64,000 bases of DNA from the NCBI GenBank assembly GCA_019055375.1, contig JAHQIW010007131.1, positions 558,001 to 622,000 of the forward strand, written 5' to 3'. The position numbers were made by a program, and so were the translations under genes. Under the pieces are notes generated by a model. That model made no database searches. It saw nothing but the letters and a program-made list of their open reading frames with translations, and was not told the DNA's origin. Shown here one piece after another: positions 962-46,199 of the stretch. Position 1 is the first letter of the stretch. Every line of letters begins with the position of its first letter. Source of the DNA: Parelaphostrongylus tenuis (taxonomy: Eukaryota; Nematoda; Chromadorea; Rhabditida; Metastrongylidae).

Positions 962-973
962 CCAAATTAATAG
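962..973. repeat. left target-site duplication of the ribozyme element
   Basis: The 12-mer ccaaattaatag occurs here and identically at 1935-1946, bracketing the 961-bp hammerhead-bearing insertion. Perfect flanking direct repeats of this length are the usual footprint of target-primed retrotransposition. Confidence 0.85.
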
Positions 974-1057
974 TTCTGCTATCGACTGCTTTTTTACAGA
1001 CCCGCTCAAAATGATTTAATCTGATAAGGATATGACTTATTTTGAGCCATAGGTCTA

Positions 1058-1105
1058 GTGCTATATAGGCGCCTATTTCGTCCTATTGGGACTCATCAGT
1101 AGCAC
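1058..1105 (-). ncRNA. type I hammerhead ribozyme (copy 1, intact)
   Basis: On the minus strand the 48-nt motif has every conserved element. Stem I is GTGCTA with TAGCAC. The catalytic box is CTGATGA. Stem II is GTCC with GGAC around a 5-nt loop. The GAAA box follows. Stem III is ATAGG with CCTAT around a 2-nt loop, and the H17 residue is A. The very short, palindromic stem III is typical of retroelement hammerheads, which often cleave best as dimers or in tandem transcripts. Confidence 0.9.
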
Positions 1106-1341
1106 CCTCCCTCGGTTCCGTCGATCCCTTGAGGTTAAATAATCCTCTAAAGGAATCGGCGCCGAGTAAAAACTAATTACCCAAAGTCGGATGATGGTCT
1201 TACCTGACTTTGTGGTGACCGGCAGTCGAGCTTACGGCTTTTAAAATGAACTATACTTCTGCTATCGACTGCTTTTTTTACAGACCCGCTCAAAATGATT
1301 TAATCTGATAAGGATATGACTTATTTTGAGCCATAGGTCTA

Positions 1342-1383
1342 GTGCTATATAGGCGCCTATTTCGTCCTATTGGGACTCATCAG
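1342..1383 (-). ncRNA. hammerhead ribozyme copy 2, broken
   Basis: This has the same catalytic boxes, stem II and stem III as copy 1. A 14-nt deletion next to the CTGATGA box removes the 5' strand of stem I, so the TAGCAC strand has no partner. It should be inactive unless replacement pairing forms. Confidence 0.85.
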
Positions 1384-1570
1384 TGTTCCGTCGATCCCTT
1401 GAGGTTAAATAATCCTCTAAAGGAATCGGCGCCGAGTAAAAACTAATCACCCAAAGTCGGATGATGGTCTTACTTGACTTTGTGGTGACCGGCAGTCGAG
1501 CTTACGGCTTTTAAAATGAACTATACTTCTGCTATCGACTGCTTTTTTACAGACCCGGAACCGAGGGAGG

Positions 1571-1618
1571 GTGCTACTGATGAGTCCCAATAGGACGAAA
1601 TAGGCGCCTATATAGCAC
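1571..1618 (+). ncRNA. type I hammerhead ribozyme (copy 3, intact)
   Basis: Stem I pairs 1571-1576 with 1613-1618 (six perfect pairs). CTGATGA is at 1577-1583. Stem II pairs 1584-1587 with 1593-1596 around a 5-nt loop. GAAA is at 1597-1600. Stem III pairs 1600-1604 with 1607-1611. The predicted cleavage site is 3' of A1612. Every nucleotide known to be required for hammerhead catalysis is present. Confidence 0.92.
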
Positions 1619-1853
1619 TAGACCTATGGCTCAAAATAAGTCATATCCTTATCAGATTAAATCACTTTGAGCGGGTCTGTAAAAAAGCAGTCGATAGCAG
1701 AAGTATAGTTCATTTTAAAAGCCGTAAGCTCGACTGCCGGTCACCACAAAGTCAGGTAAGACCATCATCCGACTTTGGGTGATTAGTTTTTACTCGGCGC
1801 CGATTCCTTTAGAGGATTATTTAACCTCAAGGGATCGACGGAACCGAGGGAGG

Positions 1854-1901
1854 GTGCTACTGATGAGTCCCAATAGGACGAAATAGGCGCCTATATAGCA
1901 C
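1854..1901 (+). ncRNA. type I hammerhead ribozyme (copy 4, intact)
   Basis: Identical in all core and stem positions to the copy 283 nt upstream; predicted cleavage is after A1895. Cleavage at both sites on a plus-strand transcript would release a 283-nt monomer (1613-1895) with 5'-hydroxyl and 2',3'-cyclic phosphate ends, the substrate for circularisation in known retrozymes. Confidence 0.92.
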
Positions 1902-1934
1902 TAGACCTATGGCTCAAAATAAGTCATATCCTTA

Positions 1935-1946
1935 CCAAATTAATAG
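1935..1946. repeat. right target-site duplication of the ribozyme element
   Basis: Perfect copy of the 12-mer at 962-973. The plus-strand half of the element ends in aagtcatatcctta directly against it. Confidence 0.85.
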
Positions 1947-20133: not shown

Positions 20134-20907
20134 GCTGACAAGTGTAACGATGTCACTGTGTGTTCATTGATAATTTCACTTGACATACAGTGTAAAATGT
20201 TCCTCATCGTCTACTCAGTATAGGGGAATGAGCGCTCCGAAAGGATTGGCCAACGACGAAGGGTACCGCTCGACTGATCAGACCTTCAAGGTCAAAACAC
20301 GTATATTGGGCTCTATAAGTCAGCCCATTTGACAGACCACATGACGTGTTGGCTCCAATAATAATTACGAAATATATTAACAAGATTTTTTACTCTTTCT
20401 ATTCTGTGGTGTCTTGCTCCGCAATCACGAAAGCTCTTAGATTTGCGTGTAGATTCAATTCCTGCTCTAAGATTTTTTTATTCAAATGTCGACCGAGCAA
20501 CTCTAGTCGAAGGCTCTTAAATGCCTGCACGTTCCCACACACAGTGAATGACTGGTTTGCGCAAACCTCAGCGAGCTTTTTACAGGAAGGTTTGGTGATT
20601 TTCCGAAATCTGATGACCTGAGGAAATCGATTAGCAAGTGAAAAAATAAACCGAGTCCATTCGTGCCTTTTATGGCACTCAAGTTACTAGTTATTTGGGC
20701 CATTGTGATGTACTAAGTTGTCATTAGAGTTCGCTCAGGTACGAGTAGATCACGAAGTGCTAATGTTGATGAAATGAGCATAGGTTTTCTACAAAATCAA
20801 ACGTCATTTCAGGTAAACAACACGAGTACTCTCACCTTCAAAATGGCGAGTGGCCTTTTACAAGTTTTGATGATTAATACAGCAGAATATCAGTAGTGCT
20901 ATAGCAA
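20134..20907. other. gene-free stretch with a dispersed-repeat end
   Basis: No coding sequence was recognised. Positions 20,260-20,375 share ccacatgac-gttggctc and flanking strings with 32,790-32,880. They also carry a decayed hammerhead-like core (CTGATCA, then GACC/GGTC, then AAAA). Confidence 0.5.
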
Positions 20908-21199: not shown

Positions 21200-22890
21200 A
21201 TTCCACTAAATCATATTCACTGAGTATGTACAGGTTCTGAAGAAGGCAAGCCCCCTGAACGTCAGCAGTCGAACTACAGCGACGAATAAAAAAGAACAAC
21301 GGCAATAACGGGGATAAACTGGTAGCTAGCTTGTCTTAATACATAAACGATGACGTCTCGTCCACAAAAGCAACACTATTGGGATGATCTTCTTTAATGC
21401 ATAAAATTACTTTCGTTGAGTGCTTTGAATGACTCGGTAGTTTGACTTATGGAGGTGCTTCCACAGGATTATATTATTCTTCCTCGTAGTTTTTTTCGGT
21501 CAGTTGAAGATTTTGATTTGCGTCCTTTAAACTATCGGTAAAATACATAAATCCGAAAAAATCTTGTGCACCGAAACGAACCGTTGCAAAAGATAAGGCT
21601 CACAGTGGACCCGGTTAGTCTTCCATGCGTCAAGATTAACATACACTAGTACAAATTCTAAGGTTTATAGAGAGTGTGCCTTTTGAAGTGTCATAAAAAG
21701 ATCCATATATTTATAAAATAACAGGTGCATATAGGAATATGTTGATAGTAGTGGCTCTGCAAATAGTCGTTTCCGATGGATAGAATAACGGCTCTCCTCG
21801 GGATGTGTCTAGAGGAAATAACGCACCCTAAAAGCGATATTTCTACTGAAGGCAAGCTCTAGTCTACCCTGTTCCTTTCTCTTGAAACGAAATAAGTGTA
21901 AGCAACCACTTGTAGGACCGTTTACGTACACCATATGAAAGCACGTTACTCCCCATGGTATAGATGGTGATTGTATGGGCGCGGGTGCTGTTCAAATAAT
22001 CTCTCATAAGGCGTGCGGCGGCAAACACAACGGCGAAACCGGTAGGACATTCTGTGTCCATAAGAATGAACACCTAGCCGACAATTTGAAGCTGAACTGG
22101 GTACCTCACTATGTCCGCTTAGGACACAGACTCAAACAGGGCTAATTCTAAAGTAGAAGTCACCATCCTCCATAGGTAAATATAACTCAAGCGTGAAAGA
22201 TTCTCAGAGTCAAGGAATCCAAACATGAACAGCAGAGGAAAATGCTTTGTTATCATGCATCATTTGATACAATAAATAACACTATTATTACATGATAATT
22301 GGATTGGCAGTCCATGTGAAATTTGTACAGTTGATCTACACTCAAACTCAGTGAAAGACTCATAAAAGCGGTGAATGTGTAAAAAGTTCTTTAGCGCTTT
22401 ATGCGATTGAAATCTAGGTTCAATGGTTCAATGATTCTTTTTGTTGGAGTAAAAGAGGTGCTTAGCCGACGGATTGTGGACAACCAAATCTTTCTAGGCT
22501 CTGAAGAACTCGAAAACACCGAAACATCAGTTGTTCTAATGAAATGTATAATATGATAACGACCTCGAATCTGGCTTACAAAAAAAAAATCCGCTAATCA
22601 TGTTGCTATAAGTTGTTATGGTGAGTCGATTTGTGGCATATGCCATAGAACAATTCGACGCATGGAAACATATTGAGAAACTCGGAAGATAAAAGATCAC
22701 AAAAAGCTACTAAATATAGCAGTAAAACTCTATGATATAAGGTCTTTTGGTGTGAAATCCCATGAACTAAGAAATCCAGCTATAACGCAAGCGAACAAAC
22801 TCGTGAAACGAAGAGATACAGAGTGATGATCAAGTCTTCAACGATGGCGACTTCTTCAGTGATGATCAACTGACTAACCTCTCCATGTAC
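21200..22890. other. gene-free stretch
   Basis: No gene recognised. At 22,500-22,540 there is a CTGAAGA box followed at short distance by a GAAAC box, resembling a decayed hammerhead core or retroelement end. The rest is unremarkable. Confidence 0.45.
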
Positions 22891-26327: not shown

Positions 26328-26701
26328 TAATGATGTAGAGTGGTGTGCAAAAACGTTTGCGTCAGCTGGGATTCAAACCCAGGTCTCACTCTTTCCGGGA
26401 GCGCGTGCTGAACCGTTGCACTACCGATGCCCACTTCGCACACCATTCTTTTTACGCTACAATGCGTTATCTGTCAGTAGCCAACCTCAACATCTGTTAA
26501 CGTAAGTGGGTTGCCTATAGCGGCTACCCAGTCAGACCGTCGACGGTTGACTATTGACAGATAACGCGTTGTAGCGTAGAAAAAAATGGTGTGCGAAACG
26601 AGCGTCGCAAGTGCAACGGTTCAGCACGCGCTCCCGTGAAGAGTGAGATCTGAGTTCGAATCTCAGCTGATGCAAACACTTTTGCAGACCACTCTACATC
26701 A
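26328..26701. repeat. palindromic foldback element with tRNA-like arms (family B, full copy)
   Basis: A near-perfect palindrome. The left end tgatgtagagtggt at 26,331 is mirrored by accactctacatca ending at 26,701. The inner arms mirror each other through gcgttatctgtca and tgacagataacgc. Each arm contains a tRNA-like module: in the right arm gtgcaacggttcagcacgcg (A-box region) and gagttcgaatctcagctgat (B box/T arm). It has no coding capacity. The loop is about 55 bp. Confidence 0.8.
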
Positions 26702-32405: not shown

Positions 32406-34796
32406 TAGACAACTTAGCGTTTCTTTTGCTATGATAATAGGTCTATAGAAGAACGTTCGCTACTAATCGACACCAGAAAATAGCATCAAAGAATCTGCTG
32501 TGGAGCATCGTGGTGAAGATCAGACCGGAGACCTTTTTCTCGGTGGCATGCTCATAAAACACTACTACGGGCTGCTCACCGAGCGCGGCGAGGCGGGCCT
32601 ATCGCGTATCCCTATGTTACTCAAAGTGTTAACAACGATCCCATACTGTATACAGCACTGAAGAATCAGGCGTGGTGACACCTCACTGGTACAGCTCACT
32701 GATCCATCATGTCATCATGTCATAGATGTAATTGTTGATGACATTCATATTGATGAAAAAGACAGCAGTTTGCAATATATATCATTTTGACGTGTCTGTA
32801 AGGACGAAACACTTGTATCGGGCTGTACAAGAGCCCTTACCAGACCACATGACAAGTTGGCTCAAATATTAATGAAAGGATATATCATTTTGGATATCAT
32901 TTGGTAGTAATCAGCTGTTAAATTACATGAATAATCCACAGTAAGAGTAATCGGCCAGGATGTCTTTTAGAGAGTAGAGATATAGAGTAAAAGGAGACTC
33001 GTGTTAGTCCTCATATCCTATTGGTGATTTCTTATATTATTATTTTACTGTCTTCTCTTAATTCGACGCAAGAATATCTTATGAGAACCAACAAATACAT
33101 CCACGAAGACCTTTTCCATGATATTATCTTGAAAAGAGATCGTACTTATGGTAACGTAGATATTATCCATAAAGCATTCTTTCACGGAAAAAGATTTTCA
33201 TGTAATTCTTTTGAAATTGTACCAAATCTGACCACTATTCGTTGTGACTATAGCCATCTTAGAGAGATTATAGAGTGACTAATTTTTTTTGGGCATTTTG
33301 ATTCTTAACAGATGTTCTCTTTTCCGTCCTGCTCACGCGGCAAAACTTTGAGGTCATTAGTGAAAACCTTGTCAGATGCGATTACAATGATTTCTCAGAA
33401 GTTTGCCTTCGATATGCTATATGTGCTCATTGTTCTCGCTTTTTCCCAGTATTACCGCCAGAAATGTAAAGGTAAACGTCTTTTGCTTCGCTTCTACAAG
33501 TCTTCATAGTAAATACAATCAATCTAGGTATTCTAAAGCAGTGACTTTTACCTATCCTTTTCCTCATGTGGCTTGATGGTAACAGTTATCCTTGTCGATG
33601 ACTGAATAATGTTGCTTCACCAGTCTCTGTAACCTTCTATCGATTAAAAAAATACTCAATTTAGTCATTATAAGTAGCATGAAGCAAATTGTTTACGCTT
33701 GTAAATAAACGAAAAAGCGTAAACCACAGCTCTAACATAAATCTAATTTTTCAATCAATGCCAATTTCTATTTCCCATGGTAGAATATGATTTGAAATAT
33801 GGCTACATGAATACCCAAAGAGGTATAGTGACGATTGGAGTCCATGTCACAAAAATATCAGCCTTCAAATTTTGCTCGCATCACAGCATTCTTGTGACTG
33901 TCTCATTCTTTTTTTCACTCTGTTCCCTCTTCCTTCGTATTTTTCACAACGCCGTCTTCTTAACGTAGTTCTTTCTCAATATTTTCTTGTTTTTCTCACC
34001 CTGCTCTCATTTCTTCCTCTTCTTCCATATTTTTTTTGTCTACTGTGGCCAATGCTCTCAAACTATCGCATGTTATTGACTGTTTTTGCCAAACGGCAGT
34101 ATTTGTCCTACAGTGCTATTTATGAAATTCTACTATGTGTACGTTAATAAGTGGTTTTCATATCACAAGCGTTTTCATCTTTCAACGAATATTTTTCGAC
34201 TCTAGTACTACTTCTGTGCTAACATATTTCATTGGGAGTTTCAATGAGTACTTCACAAAATTTATGAAAACTTCTCAGAAGTAGATCCGAACTTCAAAGG
34301 TGTATTAGGTGGATCCTGGGAAACTTGTAAGCCATAAGCAAAAGAGTACACATTCCCAAGAAGCTGCGCGACTCGATCACCGGTATAATCAGGCGAATGC
34401 CGTCAAACCCTCCACTACATCAACCATTGGTCGCTTTCCATTCAACAATAGCAGGTTATAGATAGGACGAGTTTTCCAATTCAGACCCTTTATTCAAGCC
34501 CACATGCGATTAACACCTACATACAACTAAACGCTTAACCATACTAGTAAGCAACCATAGACCATATTGGCACTTTATTTCGCACACTAAGTACAGTCCC
34601 TCCACATTTCGATTGCAATAAACTTTCGTTGAGTGCAATCTCTCGTTACACTTACATGATCTCGAATACCTTTTTCCTTACTTCAATGAGTGAAACTAAC
34701 TAAAATACTAGATTGACTATTGTTAGCTCCTTCAATTTTTTGCACAGCTACAAGGTGAACAATATTTTCGCCTATCGATCCATGGAAGCAAAGTTA
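32406..34796. other. gene-free stretch
   Basis: AT-rich. Positions 32,790-32,880 are a diverged copy of the repeat end at 20,260-20,375. Short open frames (for instance 33,021-33,278) have no splice or family support. Confidence 0.4.
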
Positions 34797-35644: not shown

Positions 35645-35995
35645 TTCGCTAGTTGATATATAAACAAGCTGCAGCGAGTCTTACAATGGTGAGGTATGTG
35701 CCTGGCTCAGAACCACAAAAATGGATTTGATACTTGTCGGGAAATCGCCACTGATGACGAGCCACTCATCATTACAATTTATATTTGTATTTTTGATATT
35801 AACCCTAGCATTAAGAATTCTGTGCGGTGACATTTTACGCTCTTGTGCAAGAATGGCTATTTTTTCTTCAAAGTCTACTCTCTTATGGGTCTGTGCCGTG
35901 TGCATATTTAGTAAGGTATTTGATCTAGCTTTAGCTTTGCCATCTATTTATACATTTTTCAATTTTATTAGCAAAATCATTATTTTTTTCGAAGT
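35645..35995 (+). repeat. dispersed repeat, copy 1
   Basis: Shares with 42,875-43,215, in the same order and orientation, ctagttgat, ggtatgtgcctggc, cagaaccacaaaa, actcatc, and a final tcaattttattagc/aaatcat-type block. The open frame inside it is AT-rich and hydrophobic and probably not a gene. Confidence 0.55.
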
Positions 35996-38269: not shown

Positions 38270-41200
38270 CATCTTCGGTAGAGCTACAGTGCTGCACTCT
38301 GCCTCTGGAATAAGACTATCGTGTCTCAGTCAGCTTCTAAAATGAGGCTGCCGTGTTTCAGTCTACTTTTGAGGTGCCGCGTTTTATCTATCTTCTAAAG
38401 TGAGGCTGCCGTGTGCGGATCACCCTCCGACGTGCCAATGTCGCGTTTCAGTCTACTTCAGAGTTGTGGTTGCCATGTTCTATCCAACTTCTAAACTGAG
38501 GCTGTCTTCTCCAAGTCTGCCTCTGAAGTGCCGCGCTGTAGTCTACATCTGAAGTGAGGTTGCTGTATTCTTAGTCTGCCTCAGAGATGAGGCTGTCTTG
38601 CCCTAGTCCGCCCACAAAGTGCCGCTGTCGCTCTGTAGTCTATTTCTGAGGTGAGGCCGCCTTTTTTTATCTAGCTTCTAAGTTGGGGCTGTCTTGTCTT
38701 AGTCTGCCTCTAGATTACCGTTGCCACATTGCTACTTTTTAGGTGAGGCTGCCGCGCGCTTTATATAGCCTCTAAAGTGATGCTTTCCTTATTCTAATCT
38801 GCCTCTGAAGTGCCGTGGCCGCGTTGTAGTCTACTATTAAGGTGAGGCTGCCGCGTATTTTCTGTTCTAAAGTTAAGCTAACTTATCCTAGTCCGTGTCT
38901 GAAGTGCCGTGGCCGCGCTGTAGTCTGCTTCTAAGATGCGGCTGCCGCGTTTTATCTGGCTTCTAAAGTGACGCTGTCTTATCCTAGTTTGCCTCAGGAG
39001 TGCCGTTTCTGCGCTGTAGTCTACTTTTGAGGTGAGGCTGCCGTCTTTTATCTTGCTTCTAAAGCGCGTCTGTCTTATCCTTGACTGCCTCAGAAGTGCC
39101 GTTTCCGCGCTGTAGTCTACTTTTGAGGTGAGGCTCCCGCGTTTTTTCTGGCTTCTCAAGTTAGATTGTCTTGTCCTAGTTTGCCTCTGATGTACCGTCG
39201 CCGTGTTGCAGTCTACTTCTGAGGTGAGGCTGCCGTGTTTTATCAAGCATCTACAGTGAAACTGTTATATCTTAGTCTACCTCTGAAGTGCCGTTGCCTC
39301 TCGTTATAGTCTACTTCTGGGTGGGGCTGCCGTCTTTTATATTGCTTTCAAAGTGAAGCTGTCCTATCCTAGTCTGCGTCTTTAGTGCCGTTGCTGCGCT
39401 GTAGTCTACTTCTGAGGTAAAGCCACCGTGTTTTATCTAGCTTATAAGGTAAGGCTGTCTTTCCTAGTCTGTGTCTGAAGTGCCGTTGCCGCGTTGAAGT
39501 CTACCTCTGAGGTGACGCCGCCGTGTTTTATCTAGCTTCTAAAGTAAAACTGTCTTGTTTTATTCTGCCTCTGAAATGCCATTGCCGCTCCGTAGTCTCC
39601 TTCTGAGGTGAGGCTGCCGCGTTTTATAAAGCATCTAAGGTGGAACTGCCATATTTTAGTCCGCCTCTGAAAGGCCGTTGCCTCTCGTTATAGTCTACTT
39701 CTAAGGTAAGGCCGAAGTGTTTTATCTAGCTTCTAAAGTGAAGCTCTTGTCCTAGTCTGCTCCTGAATTACCGCGCCGTGGTCTACTTCCGAGGTGAAGC
39801 TGTTTGTTCATAGTCTGCCTCTCAGATGTGGCTGTCTTGTCCTGGTCTGCCTCTGAAGTGCCGTTGCCGTGTTGTATTCTACTTCTGAGGTGCGGTTGCC
39901 GCGTTTTATCTAGCTTCTAAAATGATGCTGTTTAAATCAAAGTCTGCCTCTAAAGTGCCGTTGCCCCGCTGTAGTCTACTTTTGTGGTGAGGCTGCCGCG
40001 TTTTTCTTTATTCTAAAGTTAAGTTCTCTTGTCCTAGTCGGTGTCTGAAGTGCCGTTGCCGCGGTGTAATTGACTTCTGAGGTGAGGCCGCCGTGCTTTA
40101 TCTTGCTTCTAAAGCGCGTCCGTCTTATCCAAGCCTTCGTCCGAAGTGCCGCTGCCGTGTTGCCGTCTACTTCTGAGGTGCGGCTGCCGCGTTTTATCTG
40201 GCTCCTAAAGTGATGCTGTCTTAACCTAGTCTGCGTCTGAAGTGCCGTTGCTGCGCTGTAGTCTGCTTCTGAGGTAAGACCGCCATGTTTCATCTCGCTT
40301 CTGAAGTGAGGCTGTCTTGTCTTGATTTGCCTCTGGAGTGCCTTTGCCACGTTGTCGTCTACTTCTGAGATGAGGCCGCCGTGCTTCACCTGGCTTCCAG
40401 GGTGATGCTTTCTTATCCTAGTCTGCCTTTAGAGTGCCGTTGCCACGTTGTAGTCTACTTCTGAGGTGCGGCTGCCGCGTTTTATCTAGTCTCTAGAGTG
40501 GTACTGTCTAATCTCAATCTGCCTCTGAAGTGCCGTTGCCTCTCGTTATAGTCTCCTTCTAAGGTGAGGCCGAAGTGTTTTATCTTGCTTCTAAAGCGCG
40601 TCTGTCTTATCCTAGTCTGCTTCTGAAGTGCCGTTGCCGCGCTGTAGTCTATTTCTGAGGTGCGGCTGCCGCGTTTTATCTAGTCTCTAGAGTGGTACTG
40701 TCTAATCTTAATCTGCCTCTGAAGTGCCGTTGCCTCTCGTTATAGTCTACTTCTAAGGTGAGGCCGAAGTGTTTTATCTTGCTTCTAAAGCGCGTCTGTC
40801 TTATCCTAGTCTGCTTCTGAAGTGCCGTTGCCGCGCTGTAGTCTATTTCTGAGGTGCGGCTGCCGCGTTTTATCTGCCTTCTAAAGTGATGCTGTCTTAT
40901 CATTGGCTGCCTCAGAAGTGCCGTTTCCGCGCTGTAGTCTACTTTTGAGGCGAGGCTCCCGCGTTTTTTCTGGTTTCTCAAGTTAGACTGTTTTGTCCTA
41001 GTCTGCTTCTGATGTGCCGTTGCCGTGTTGCAGTCTACTTCTGAGGTGGGGCTGCCGTCTTTTATCTTGTTTCTAAAGCGAGGTTGTCTTATCTTATTCT
41101 GCCTCTGAAGTGGCGTTGCCGCGGTGTCGTCTATCTCTGAGTTAGGGCTTCCGTGTTTCATCTATCTTCTGAAGTGAGGCAGTCTTGTCCCAGTCTGCCT

Positions 41201-45890: not shown

Positions 45891-46020
45891 CAAGATGTGC
45901 AAAGTCATCTCCATAATACTTATAAAGTCGAATGCATGGGGCACCTCTAATGAAATGGCCCACATCGAGTGTCTTATGGTTTCTCACTTTCAAAATAATT
46001 CCAAAAAAAATGTGGGGCGG

Positions 46021-46069
46021 GGGTCACTGACGAGGAGGCCGAAACCTCCGAAACACCGGTGTATGACCC
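46021..46069 (+). ncRNA. type I hammerhead ribozyme, second family
   Basis: All core elements are present and fully paired. Stem I pairs GGGTCA (46,021-46,026) with TGACCC (46,064-46,069). CTGACGA is at 46,027-46,033. Stem II pairs GGAGG (46,034-46,038) with CCTCC (46,045-46,049) around a 6-nt loop. GAAA is at 46,050-46,053. Stem III is the loop-less palindrome ACACC/GGTGT (46,053-46,062), and H17 is A46063, the predicted cleavage site. Its stems are unrelated in sequence to the ribozymes at 1-2 kb. The zero-loop stem III implies dimeric action, as in PLE or retrozyme hammerheads. No second copy lies nearby, so it is a solo unit. Upstream, 45,918-45,950 resembles a family A SINE tail. Confidence 0.88.
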
Positions 46070-46199
46070 TGGCGTACCAACGTCGTTTAGGCTCGAAACA
46101 TTCTTTTTTTTTTATTATTCTGAATGTTTATCACGAGGTTTCAAAAACAGTCGATCATATGGATTAGTTTCTCACTTTATCCATCTTTCTAAAAATCTC

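What the first reader, a model, noticed from the sequence alone, without database searches (positions are those of the whole stretch)
974..1934. Retrozyme-like array of hammerhead ribozymes in a nematode genome
Four hammerhead motifs occur in one 961-bp insertion, three of them with every catalytic nucleotide and all stems intact. Two plus-strand copies lie exactly 283 nt apart, so a transcript could self-cleave into a 283-nt monomer (1613-1895). This is the architecture of animal retrozymes and PLE-linked hammerhead repeats; stem III is the short palindromic type. I do not know of this particular repeat having been described.
Basis: partly seen in the sequence, partly recalled or inferred. 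Interest (0 to 1): 0.93.

Follow-up and report, generated by a model that had tools for sequence, protein, structure and literature searches.

The report
Hammerhead retrozyme with Penelope-style insertion ends
A worm genome carries over a thousand copies of a tiny self-cutting RNA element, and the way its copies sit in the DNA matches the insertion pattern of a larger jumping gene (a Penelope-like element) in the same genome, which suggests that the larger element moves it.

Summary
Window 974-1934 is a 961-bp insertion with a 12-bp target-site duplication and four type I hammerhead cores. Three are complete; one lost a stem I strand through a 14-nt deletion. The genome holds 1,167 exact copies of the 42-nt core (reversed-pattern control 0). 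It is a 283-nt non-coding retrozyme in a strongylid-like nematode.

Of 35 distinct insertions examined, 25 are divergent: minus-strand units left, plus-strand units right, 3' ends outward. Outer ends fall at two unit positions, A (35-50) and B (86-105). In 23 of the 25, one end is A and the other B. All 12 divergent Penelope-like element (PLE) pairs examined in this genome obey the same rule. A PLE enzyme was shown in vitro to extend both DNA strands from two adjacent internal RNA sites (PMC11167929).

Best explanation: PLE protein cuts both strands and starts at A on one and B on the other, copying retrozyme RNA that is probably circular. This is genomic evidence for the published but untested idea that PLEs mobilise animal retrozymes. 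RNA cleavage, circles and trans-mobilisation are inferred. Retrozyme and PLE share start-site layout, not significant overall sequence.

The parts
962..973 (.). left target-site duplication CCAAATTAATAG
974..1557 (-). left arm: minus-strand retrozyme units, outer 3' end at site B (unit position 90)
1556..1934 (+). right arm: plus-strand retrozyme units, outer 3' end at site A (unit position 39); the arms overlap by 2 nt at the centre
1935..1946 (.). right target-site duplication CCAAATTAATAG
1058..1105 (-). type I hammerhead, complete
1342..1383 (-). hammerhead core without the 5' strand of stem I (14-nt deletion at 1384/1385)
1571..1618 (+). type I hammerhead, complete; predicted cut after 1612
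1854..1901 (+). type I hammerhead, complete; predicted cut after 1895
1613..1895 (+). 283-nt monomer between the two plus-strand cut sites
   Evidence: GC 0.442, no long frame
1619..1679 (+). predicted hairpin after the ribozyme cut; site A lies in its loop
1688..1693 (+). CAGTCG, 5-24 nt upstream of the observed B ends (unit positions 76-81)
983..988 (-). CAGTCG next to the actual B end of this insertion
   Evidence: by reading

Best explanation
The insertion is one copy of a non-autonomous, non-coding 283-nt retrozyme. Tandem copies are transcribed and the hammerheads cut the RNA into 283-nt monomers, which are probably ligated into circles (inferred). A Penelope-like RT/GIY-YIG protein encoded elsewhere in the genome acts on this RNA in trans (inferred from the matching footprint). 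It cuts both target strands about 12 nt apart in AT-rich DNA. On one strand it starts reverse transcription at site A, in the loop of a hairpin just after the ribozyme cut. On the other strand it starts at site B, about 50 nt further on, just after a CAGTCG motif. Each cDNA runs around the template for a fraction of a unit up to about 14 units. The two cDNA ends are then joined in the middle, and gap filling makes the duplication. Shown by sequence: ribozyme cores, copy number, divergent arms, A/B ends, duplications, similarity of the two arms, and the same rule in resident PLEs. Inferred: transcription, cleavage, circularisation and use of the PLE enzyme.
For: Of 35 distinct insertions (40 examined, 5 duplicates dropped) 25 are divergent and 10 single-arm. 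23 of the 25 have one A end and one B end; one is unclassifiable, one an exception. Single-arm: 8 A, 2 B. A duplication was found in 32 of 35; 15 of these are exactly 12 nt; AT 0.75 against 0.60 for the window. All 20 mixed-strand clusters that I counted by eye in the 100 listed exact matches (of 1,167) run minus then plus. The genome has 1,723 GIY-YIG candidates, 150 scored, all 150 above the Pfam cut-off. 12 of 12 divergent PLE pairs examined, of 20 that I picked out, have one A end (52-66 nt past their own hammerhead cut) and one B end; duplications found by script in 10 of 12. If each end chose A or B independently at equal odds, 23 of 24 classifiable retrozymes has p 1.5e-6 and 12 of 12 PLEs 2.4e-4. 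Both arms carry the same major-subfamily markers in 24 of 24 insertions with data. Units differ by 0.7-1.1 substitutions within an insertion against 9.0 between insertions. An Anolis PLE protein cuts and extends both strands from two adjacent internal RNA sites in vitro (PMC11167929).
Against: No RNA data: cleavage, circles and expression are untested. Retrozyme family 1 has no significant sequence similarity to the PLE start region (p 0.34-0.94), so recognition would rest on structure and a 6-nt motif that I noticed after the fact. Arm concordance could reflect subfamilies active at different times; 3 of the 24 rest on one marker site and 3 on two. At finer resolution another insertion was closer than the opposite arm in 11 of 22 comparable insertions, the window included; the opposite arm was the single nearest in only 4 (each indel base counted). 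L040 breaks the rule (A 41 / position 26) and L014 could not be classified. The A and B ranges were set after seeing the data. The published PLE assay saw no difference in start site between the two strands (PMC11167929). The PLE pairs were picked for their minus/plus order, so they test the A/B rule but not divergence itself, and the retrozyme sample is the 40 best-scored of 2,602 candidates for a divergent query.
Confidence: 0.78

Rival explanations
1. Same mobilisation, but the template is an uncleaved multimeric transcript and not a circle; the ribozyme plays no part in transposition.
For: In vitro PLE insertion did not need hammerhead cleavage (PMC11167929). The PLE arms here also run across their own hammerhead site. 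Tandem arrays of up to about 14 units per arm exist and could be transcribed.
Against: The ribozyme is kept: 133 of 163 ribozyme-spanning units are identical over the ribozyme, and one unit has a compensatory stem II change. Units within an insertion are nearly identical, which fits a circle, though copying from a homogeneous array would look the same.
Confidence: 0.3
2. The inverted arms arise by self-priming: a cDNA folds back on itself (the reading given for rotifer PLEs in PMC3846280).
For: Self-priming gives head-to-head inverted repeats; 3 of 25 centres are near-symmetric, within 12 nt (L015, L029, L034).
Against: Fold-back copies the first arm back to its own start, so both ends should be A/A or B/B; 23 of 25 are A/B. 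The centre positions of the two arms differ widely in 22 of 25.
Confidence: 0.06
3. The units are pLTR pieces of a PLE family that I did not sample, so this is debris of an autonomous element and not a separate retrozyme.
For: Same footprint; retrozyme family 2 has weak similarity to the PLE start region (local p 0.006-0.027, uncorrected).
Against: In all 35 insertions the body is 283-nt units only. No PLE coding sequence is joined to them; PLE fragments in 5 of the 20 10-kb loci are separate or are interrupted by the insertion. Family 1 does not resemble the two PLE subfamilies seen.
Confidence: 0.1
4. An ordinary satellite spread by DNA recombination, the hammerhead being incidental.
For: Tandem arrays; arrays can change length by unequal exchange.
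Against: Dispersed short copies with target-site duplications in 32 of 35 and defined ends; the ribozyme is kept.
Confidence: 0.03

Closest known systems
Metazoan non-LTR retrozymes (Cervera and de la Pena 2020, PMC7229834; parts 1-4 of 6 read, plus a word search)
   Same: Type I hammerhead, tandem non-coding units of 170-400 nt, GC below 50%, duplications longer than 4 bp, many copies, PLEs in the same genome.
   Different: Here the arms are divergent with two defined ends. The words inverted, head-to-head, nematod and roundworm do not occur in that paper's main text. Expression and circles were shown there, not here.
Penelope-like elements with GIY-YIG endonuclease and the tail signature (PMC11167929, parts 1-2 of 4 read; PMC3846280, passages)
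   Same: Inverted arms, a tail on one of the two inverted ends (31 bp in rotifers, 30-40 bp quoted for Drosophila; about 40-65 nt here), target-site duplications, AT-rich targets, hammerhead upstream of the start sites. By my subtraction the main Anolis start site lies 85-92 nt past the hammerhead cut; retrozyme B lies at 86-105.
   Different: The retrozyme has no ORF and a hammerhead with a stem III, and is not detectably homologous to the PLEs sampled here. The earlier papers call the tail optional and do not, in what I read, state that each insertion uses one site per end.
Plant LTR retrozymes (PMC4918200, search listing and start of abstract; described in PMC7229834 and PMC7761336)
   Same: Non-autonomous hammerhead retroelement with tandem or dimeric ribozymes.
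   Different: LTRs, type III hammerhead, 4-bp duplications, likely mobilised by Gypsy elements.

Membership tests
Metazoan non-LTR retrozyme | Type I hammerhead in each unit | tested here: met
   RF00163 29.5 bits, E 5.9e-5, below the gathering score of 34; 133 of 163 ribozyme-spanning units identical over the ribozyme
Metazoan non-LTR retrozyme | Head-to-tail units of 170-400 nt, dimers to multimers | tested here: met
   283-nt units, up to 16 near-full units in one insertion
Metazoan non-LTR retrozyme | GC below 50%, no protein-coding frame | tested here: met
   GC 0.442; longest stop-free run on the circle 62 aa
Metazoan non-LTR retrozyme | Dispersed copies with duplications longer than 4 bp | tested here: met
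   32 of 35 insertions, commonest length 12 nt; no shuffle control was run for the shortest ones
Metazoan non-LTR retrozyme | Ribozyme self-cleaves; linear and circular monomer RNA | not testable with these tools
   no RNA reads or assay available
Autonomous Penelope-like element | RT plus GIY-YIG reading frame in the element | tested here: not met
   no long frame in the unit; two resident PLE copies carry RVT_1 and GIY-YIG
PLE-type integration (works like) | Two start sites, one at each end of divergent arms | tested here: met
   23 of 25 retrozyme insertions; 12 of 12 PLE pairs examined
PLE-type integration (works like) | Sequence similarity between the retrozyme and PLE start regions | tested here: not met
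   family 1 p 0.34-0.94; family 2 local p 0.006-0.027 and global p 0.007-0.17, uncorrected

The most novel reading that the evidence does not exclude
Each PLE-type integration is made by a two-enzyme complex on one small RNA: one enzyme starts at site A from one target strand and the other at site B from the other strand, so both ends of an insertion are read from one RNA circle. Several unrelated hammerhead RNAs have independently acquired the same start platform (ribozyme, hairpin with A in the loop, CAGTCG, then B) and so use this complex.
Probability: 0.42. Interest if true: 0.87.

Novelty: new variant of a known kind. Interest (0 to 1): 0.73.

Why it matters
How animal retrozymes move is an open question: PMC7229834 and PMC7761336 name PLEs only as strong or likely candidates. 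Here a retrozyme and the PLEs of one genome leave the same specific footprint (divergent arms, about 12-nt duplications, one end at each of two start sites), so the idea becomes directly testable. The rule also bears on how PLEs integrate, since two start sites used in complementary fashion argue against self-priming. My library searches listed no paper that reports a nematode retrozyme; the library lacks most subscription papers, including the two main PLE-hammerhead papers.

Tried and rejected
Rejected: self-priming as the source of the inverted arms (predicts A/A or B/B); PLE debris (no PLE sequence in the units); chance ribozyme motif. Whether A arms are longer than B arms: no, 11 of 23. 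A fine-scale test that both arms come from one molecule was inconclusive (the opposite arm was unbeaten in 11 of 22 and the single nearest in 4; 24 of 24 share the major subfamily). Overall sequence homology between retrozyme family 1 and the PLE: none. Pfam scan of four window frames: no family. Viral-contig scan for the ribozyme: 0. Rfam did not see the family-2 ribozyme or the minimal PLE ribozyme. An nhmmer search returned nothing and BLAST was used instead.

Full report
What is there. The window carries a 961-bp insertion at 974-1934 flanked by CCAAATTAATAG (962-973, 1935-1946). It consists of a left arm of minus-strand units (974-1557) and a right arm of plus-strand units (1556-1934), so that the 3' ends of both arms point outward. 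Four hammerhead cores are present. Three match Rfam RF00163 at 29.5 bits, below the gathering score but at E 5.9e-5 in a short scan; the fourth lacks one strand of stem I. The unit is 283 nt, GC 0.442, without a long reading frame.

Copies. The genome (481 Mb, 5,105 contigs) has 2,602 first-look candidates for the insertion, of which 40 were scored, and 1,167 exact matches to the 42-nt core against 0 for the reversed pattern. I examined 40 stretches (the window and L009-L047, extended where cut off), dropped five duplicates of other insertions (L021, L041 and three copies of one insertion), and mapped 35. Over the ribozyme, 133 of 163 units are identical, and one unit has a compensatory change in stem II.

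The end rule. Of the 35, 25 are divergent and 10 single-arm. The outer 3' ends fall in two places: A, unit positions 35-50, and B, 86-105, counted from the ribozyme cut. In 23 of 25 divergent insertions one end is A and the other B. L014 ends in a diverged unit and could not be classified; L040 has A 41 and an end at 26. The A and B ranges were set after seeing the data. Single-arm insertions end at A in 8 and B in 2. Duplications were found in 32 of 35, 15 of them exactly 12 nt, with AT 0.75. The centre positions differ widely between arms: 3 of 25 are near-symmetric, 12 overlap (11 by 1-6 nt, one by 41) and 13 have 1-31 extra nt. The 35 come from the 40 best-scored candidates to a divergent query, so the share of divergent insertions may be inflated; the A/B rule should be less affected. 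An independent look at orientation: in the 100 listed exact ribozyme matches, all 20 mixed-strand clusters run minus then plus (counted by eye).

The resident PLEs. A GIY-YIG search gave 1,723 candidates; all 150 scored passed the Pfam cut-off, many as minus/plus neighbours. L055 and L056 encode RVT_1 and GIY-YIG domains and carry a minimal hammerhead-like motif downstream of the endonuclease (recognised by the core pattern, not by Rfam). All 12 pairs have one end 52-66 nt and the other 101-120 nt past that cut. Duplications of 12-14 nt were found by script in 10; the ends of L057/L058 and L075/L076 were read by eye. The PLE start codon lies between its A and B sites. The pairs were chosen for their orientation, so only the A/B rule was tested.

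Published background. PMC11167929 (parts 1-2 of 4 read) shows an Anolis PLE protein cutting and extending both strands and starting at two adjacent internal RNA sites, with the genomic tail between them; it saw no strand difference in start site. PMC3846280 (passages) describes the tail as optional on one of the inverted pLTRs and explains the head-to-head repeats by self-priming. PMC7229834 (parts 1-4 of 6 read) and PMC7761336 (passages) propose PLEs as candidates for moving animal retrozymes.

Inference. Two-sided target-primed reverse transcription with one start site per strand explains the divergent arms, the two ends, the duplications and the variable centre. Self-priming would give two ends of one type. 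Under independent choice the observed counts have p 1.5e-6 (23 of 24) and 2.4e-4 (12 of 12). Both arms carry the same major subfamily in 24 of 24 insertions with data, although 3 of these rest on one marker site and 3 on two; finer markers are mixed, and in 11 of 22 insertions, the window among them, another insertion is closer than the opposite arm. One template molecule per insertion is therefore likely but not shown. Circle versus uncleaved multimer is unresolved.

Start platform. Retrozyme family 1, family 2 and both PLE subfamilies fold after the ribozyme cut into a hairpin with A in or next to the loop, followed by CAGTCG and then B. CAGTCG occurs at 76-81 (family 1), 89-94 and 90-95 (PLEs). 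Overall sequence similarity between family 1 and PLE is absent (p 0.34-0.94); family 2 resembles the PLE weakly (local p 0.006-0.027, global 0.007-0.17), and family 1 resembles family 2 (local p 0.001-0.015), all uncorrected. The motif was noticed after the fact.

Other families. A descriptor scan of 23 stretches (275,909 bases) found 97 family-1 ribozymes and 6 others, against 0 in one mononucleotide shuffle. Family 2 has 2,495 first-look candidates and tandem units of about 270 bp; its L023 copy is divergent, has a 13-nt duplication and ends of two types. Rfam does not detect the family-2 ribozyme in the window but passes the family-3 ribozyme in L024 at 34.9 bits. Family 3 did not show CAGTCG in a B-like place.

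Verdict. The finding is a genuine nematode retrozyme, of a known kind, with an unreported (in my searches) insertion structure that ties it to PLE integration.

Noticed in passing
window 45991-46166 (+): A second retrozyme family: single-arm copy with a hammerhead descriptor match (core at 46027) and a 12-nt duplication GTTTCTCACTTT at 45979-45990 and 46167-46178; CAGTCG near its end. Not detected by Rfam.
   Followed up: partly
window 20154-20375 and 32788-32884: Relics similar to a third hammerhead family (L013, L024), whose ribozyme in L024 passes the Rfam gathering score.
   Followed up: partly
window 21945-22097 (+) and 35717-35926 (-): Fragments of PLE protein, 53% and 45% identical to the L055 frame.
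   Followed up: no
L023 4639-5884: A family-1 retrozyme array sits between two parts of a PLE RT sequence, apparently inserted into a PLE copy.
   Followed up: no
L028 7554-7570 (+): A sequence like the nematode spliced leader SL1 (recalled), TTTACCCAAGTTTGAG, directly beside the large retrozyme array.
   Followed up: no
window 38878-41161 (-): Open frames with an irregular repeat of the kind VDYSAETALLRQTRIRQ, as in a long minisatellite.
   Followed up: no
window 26358-26430 (-): tRNA-Ser (GGA), the one tRNA found.
   Followed up: no
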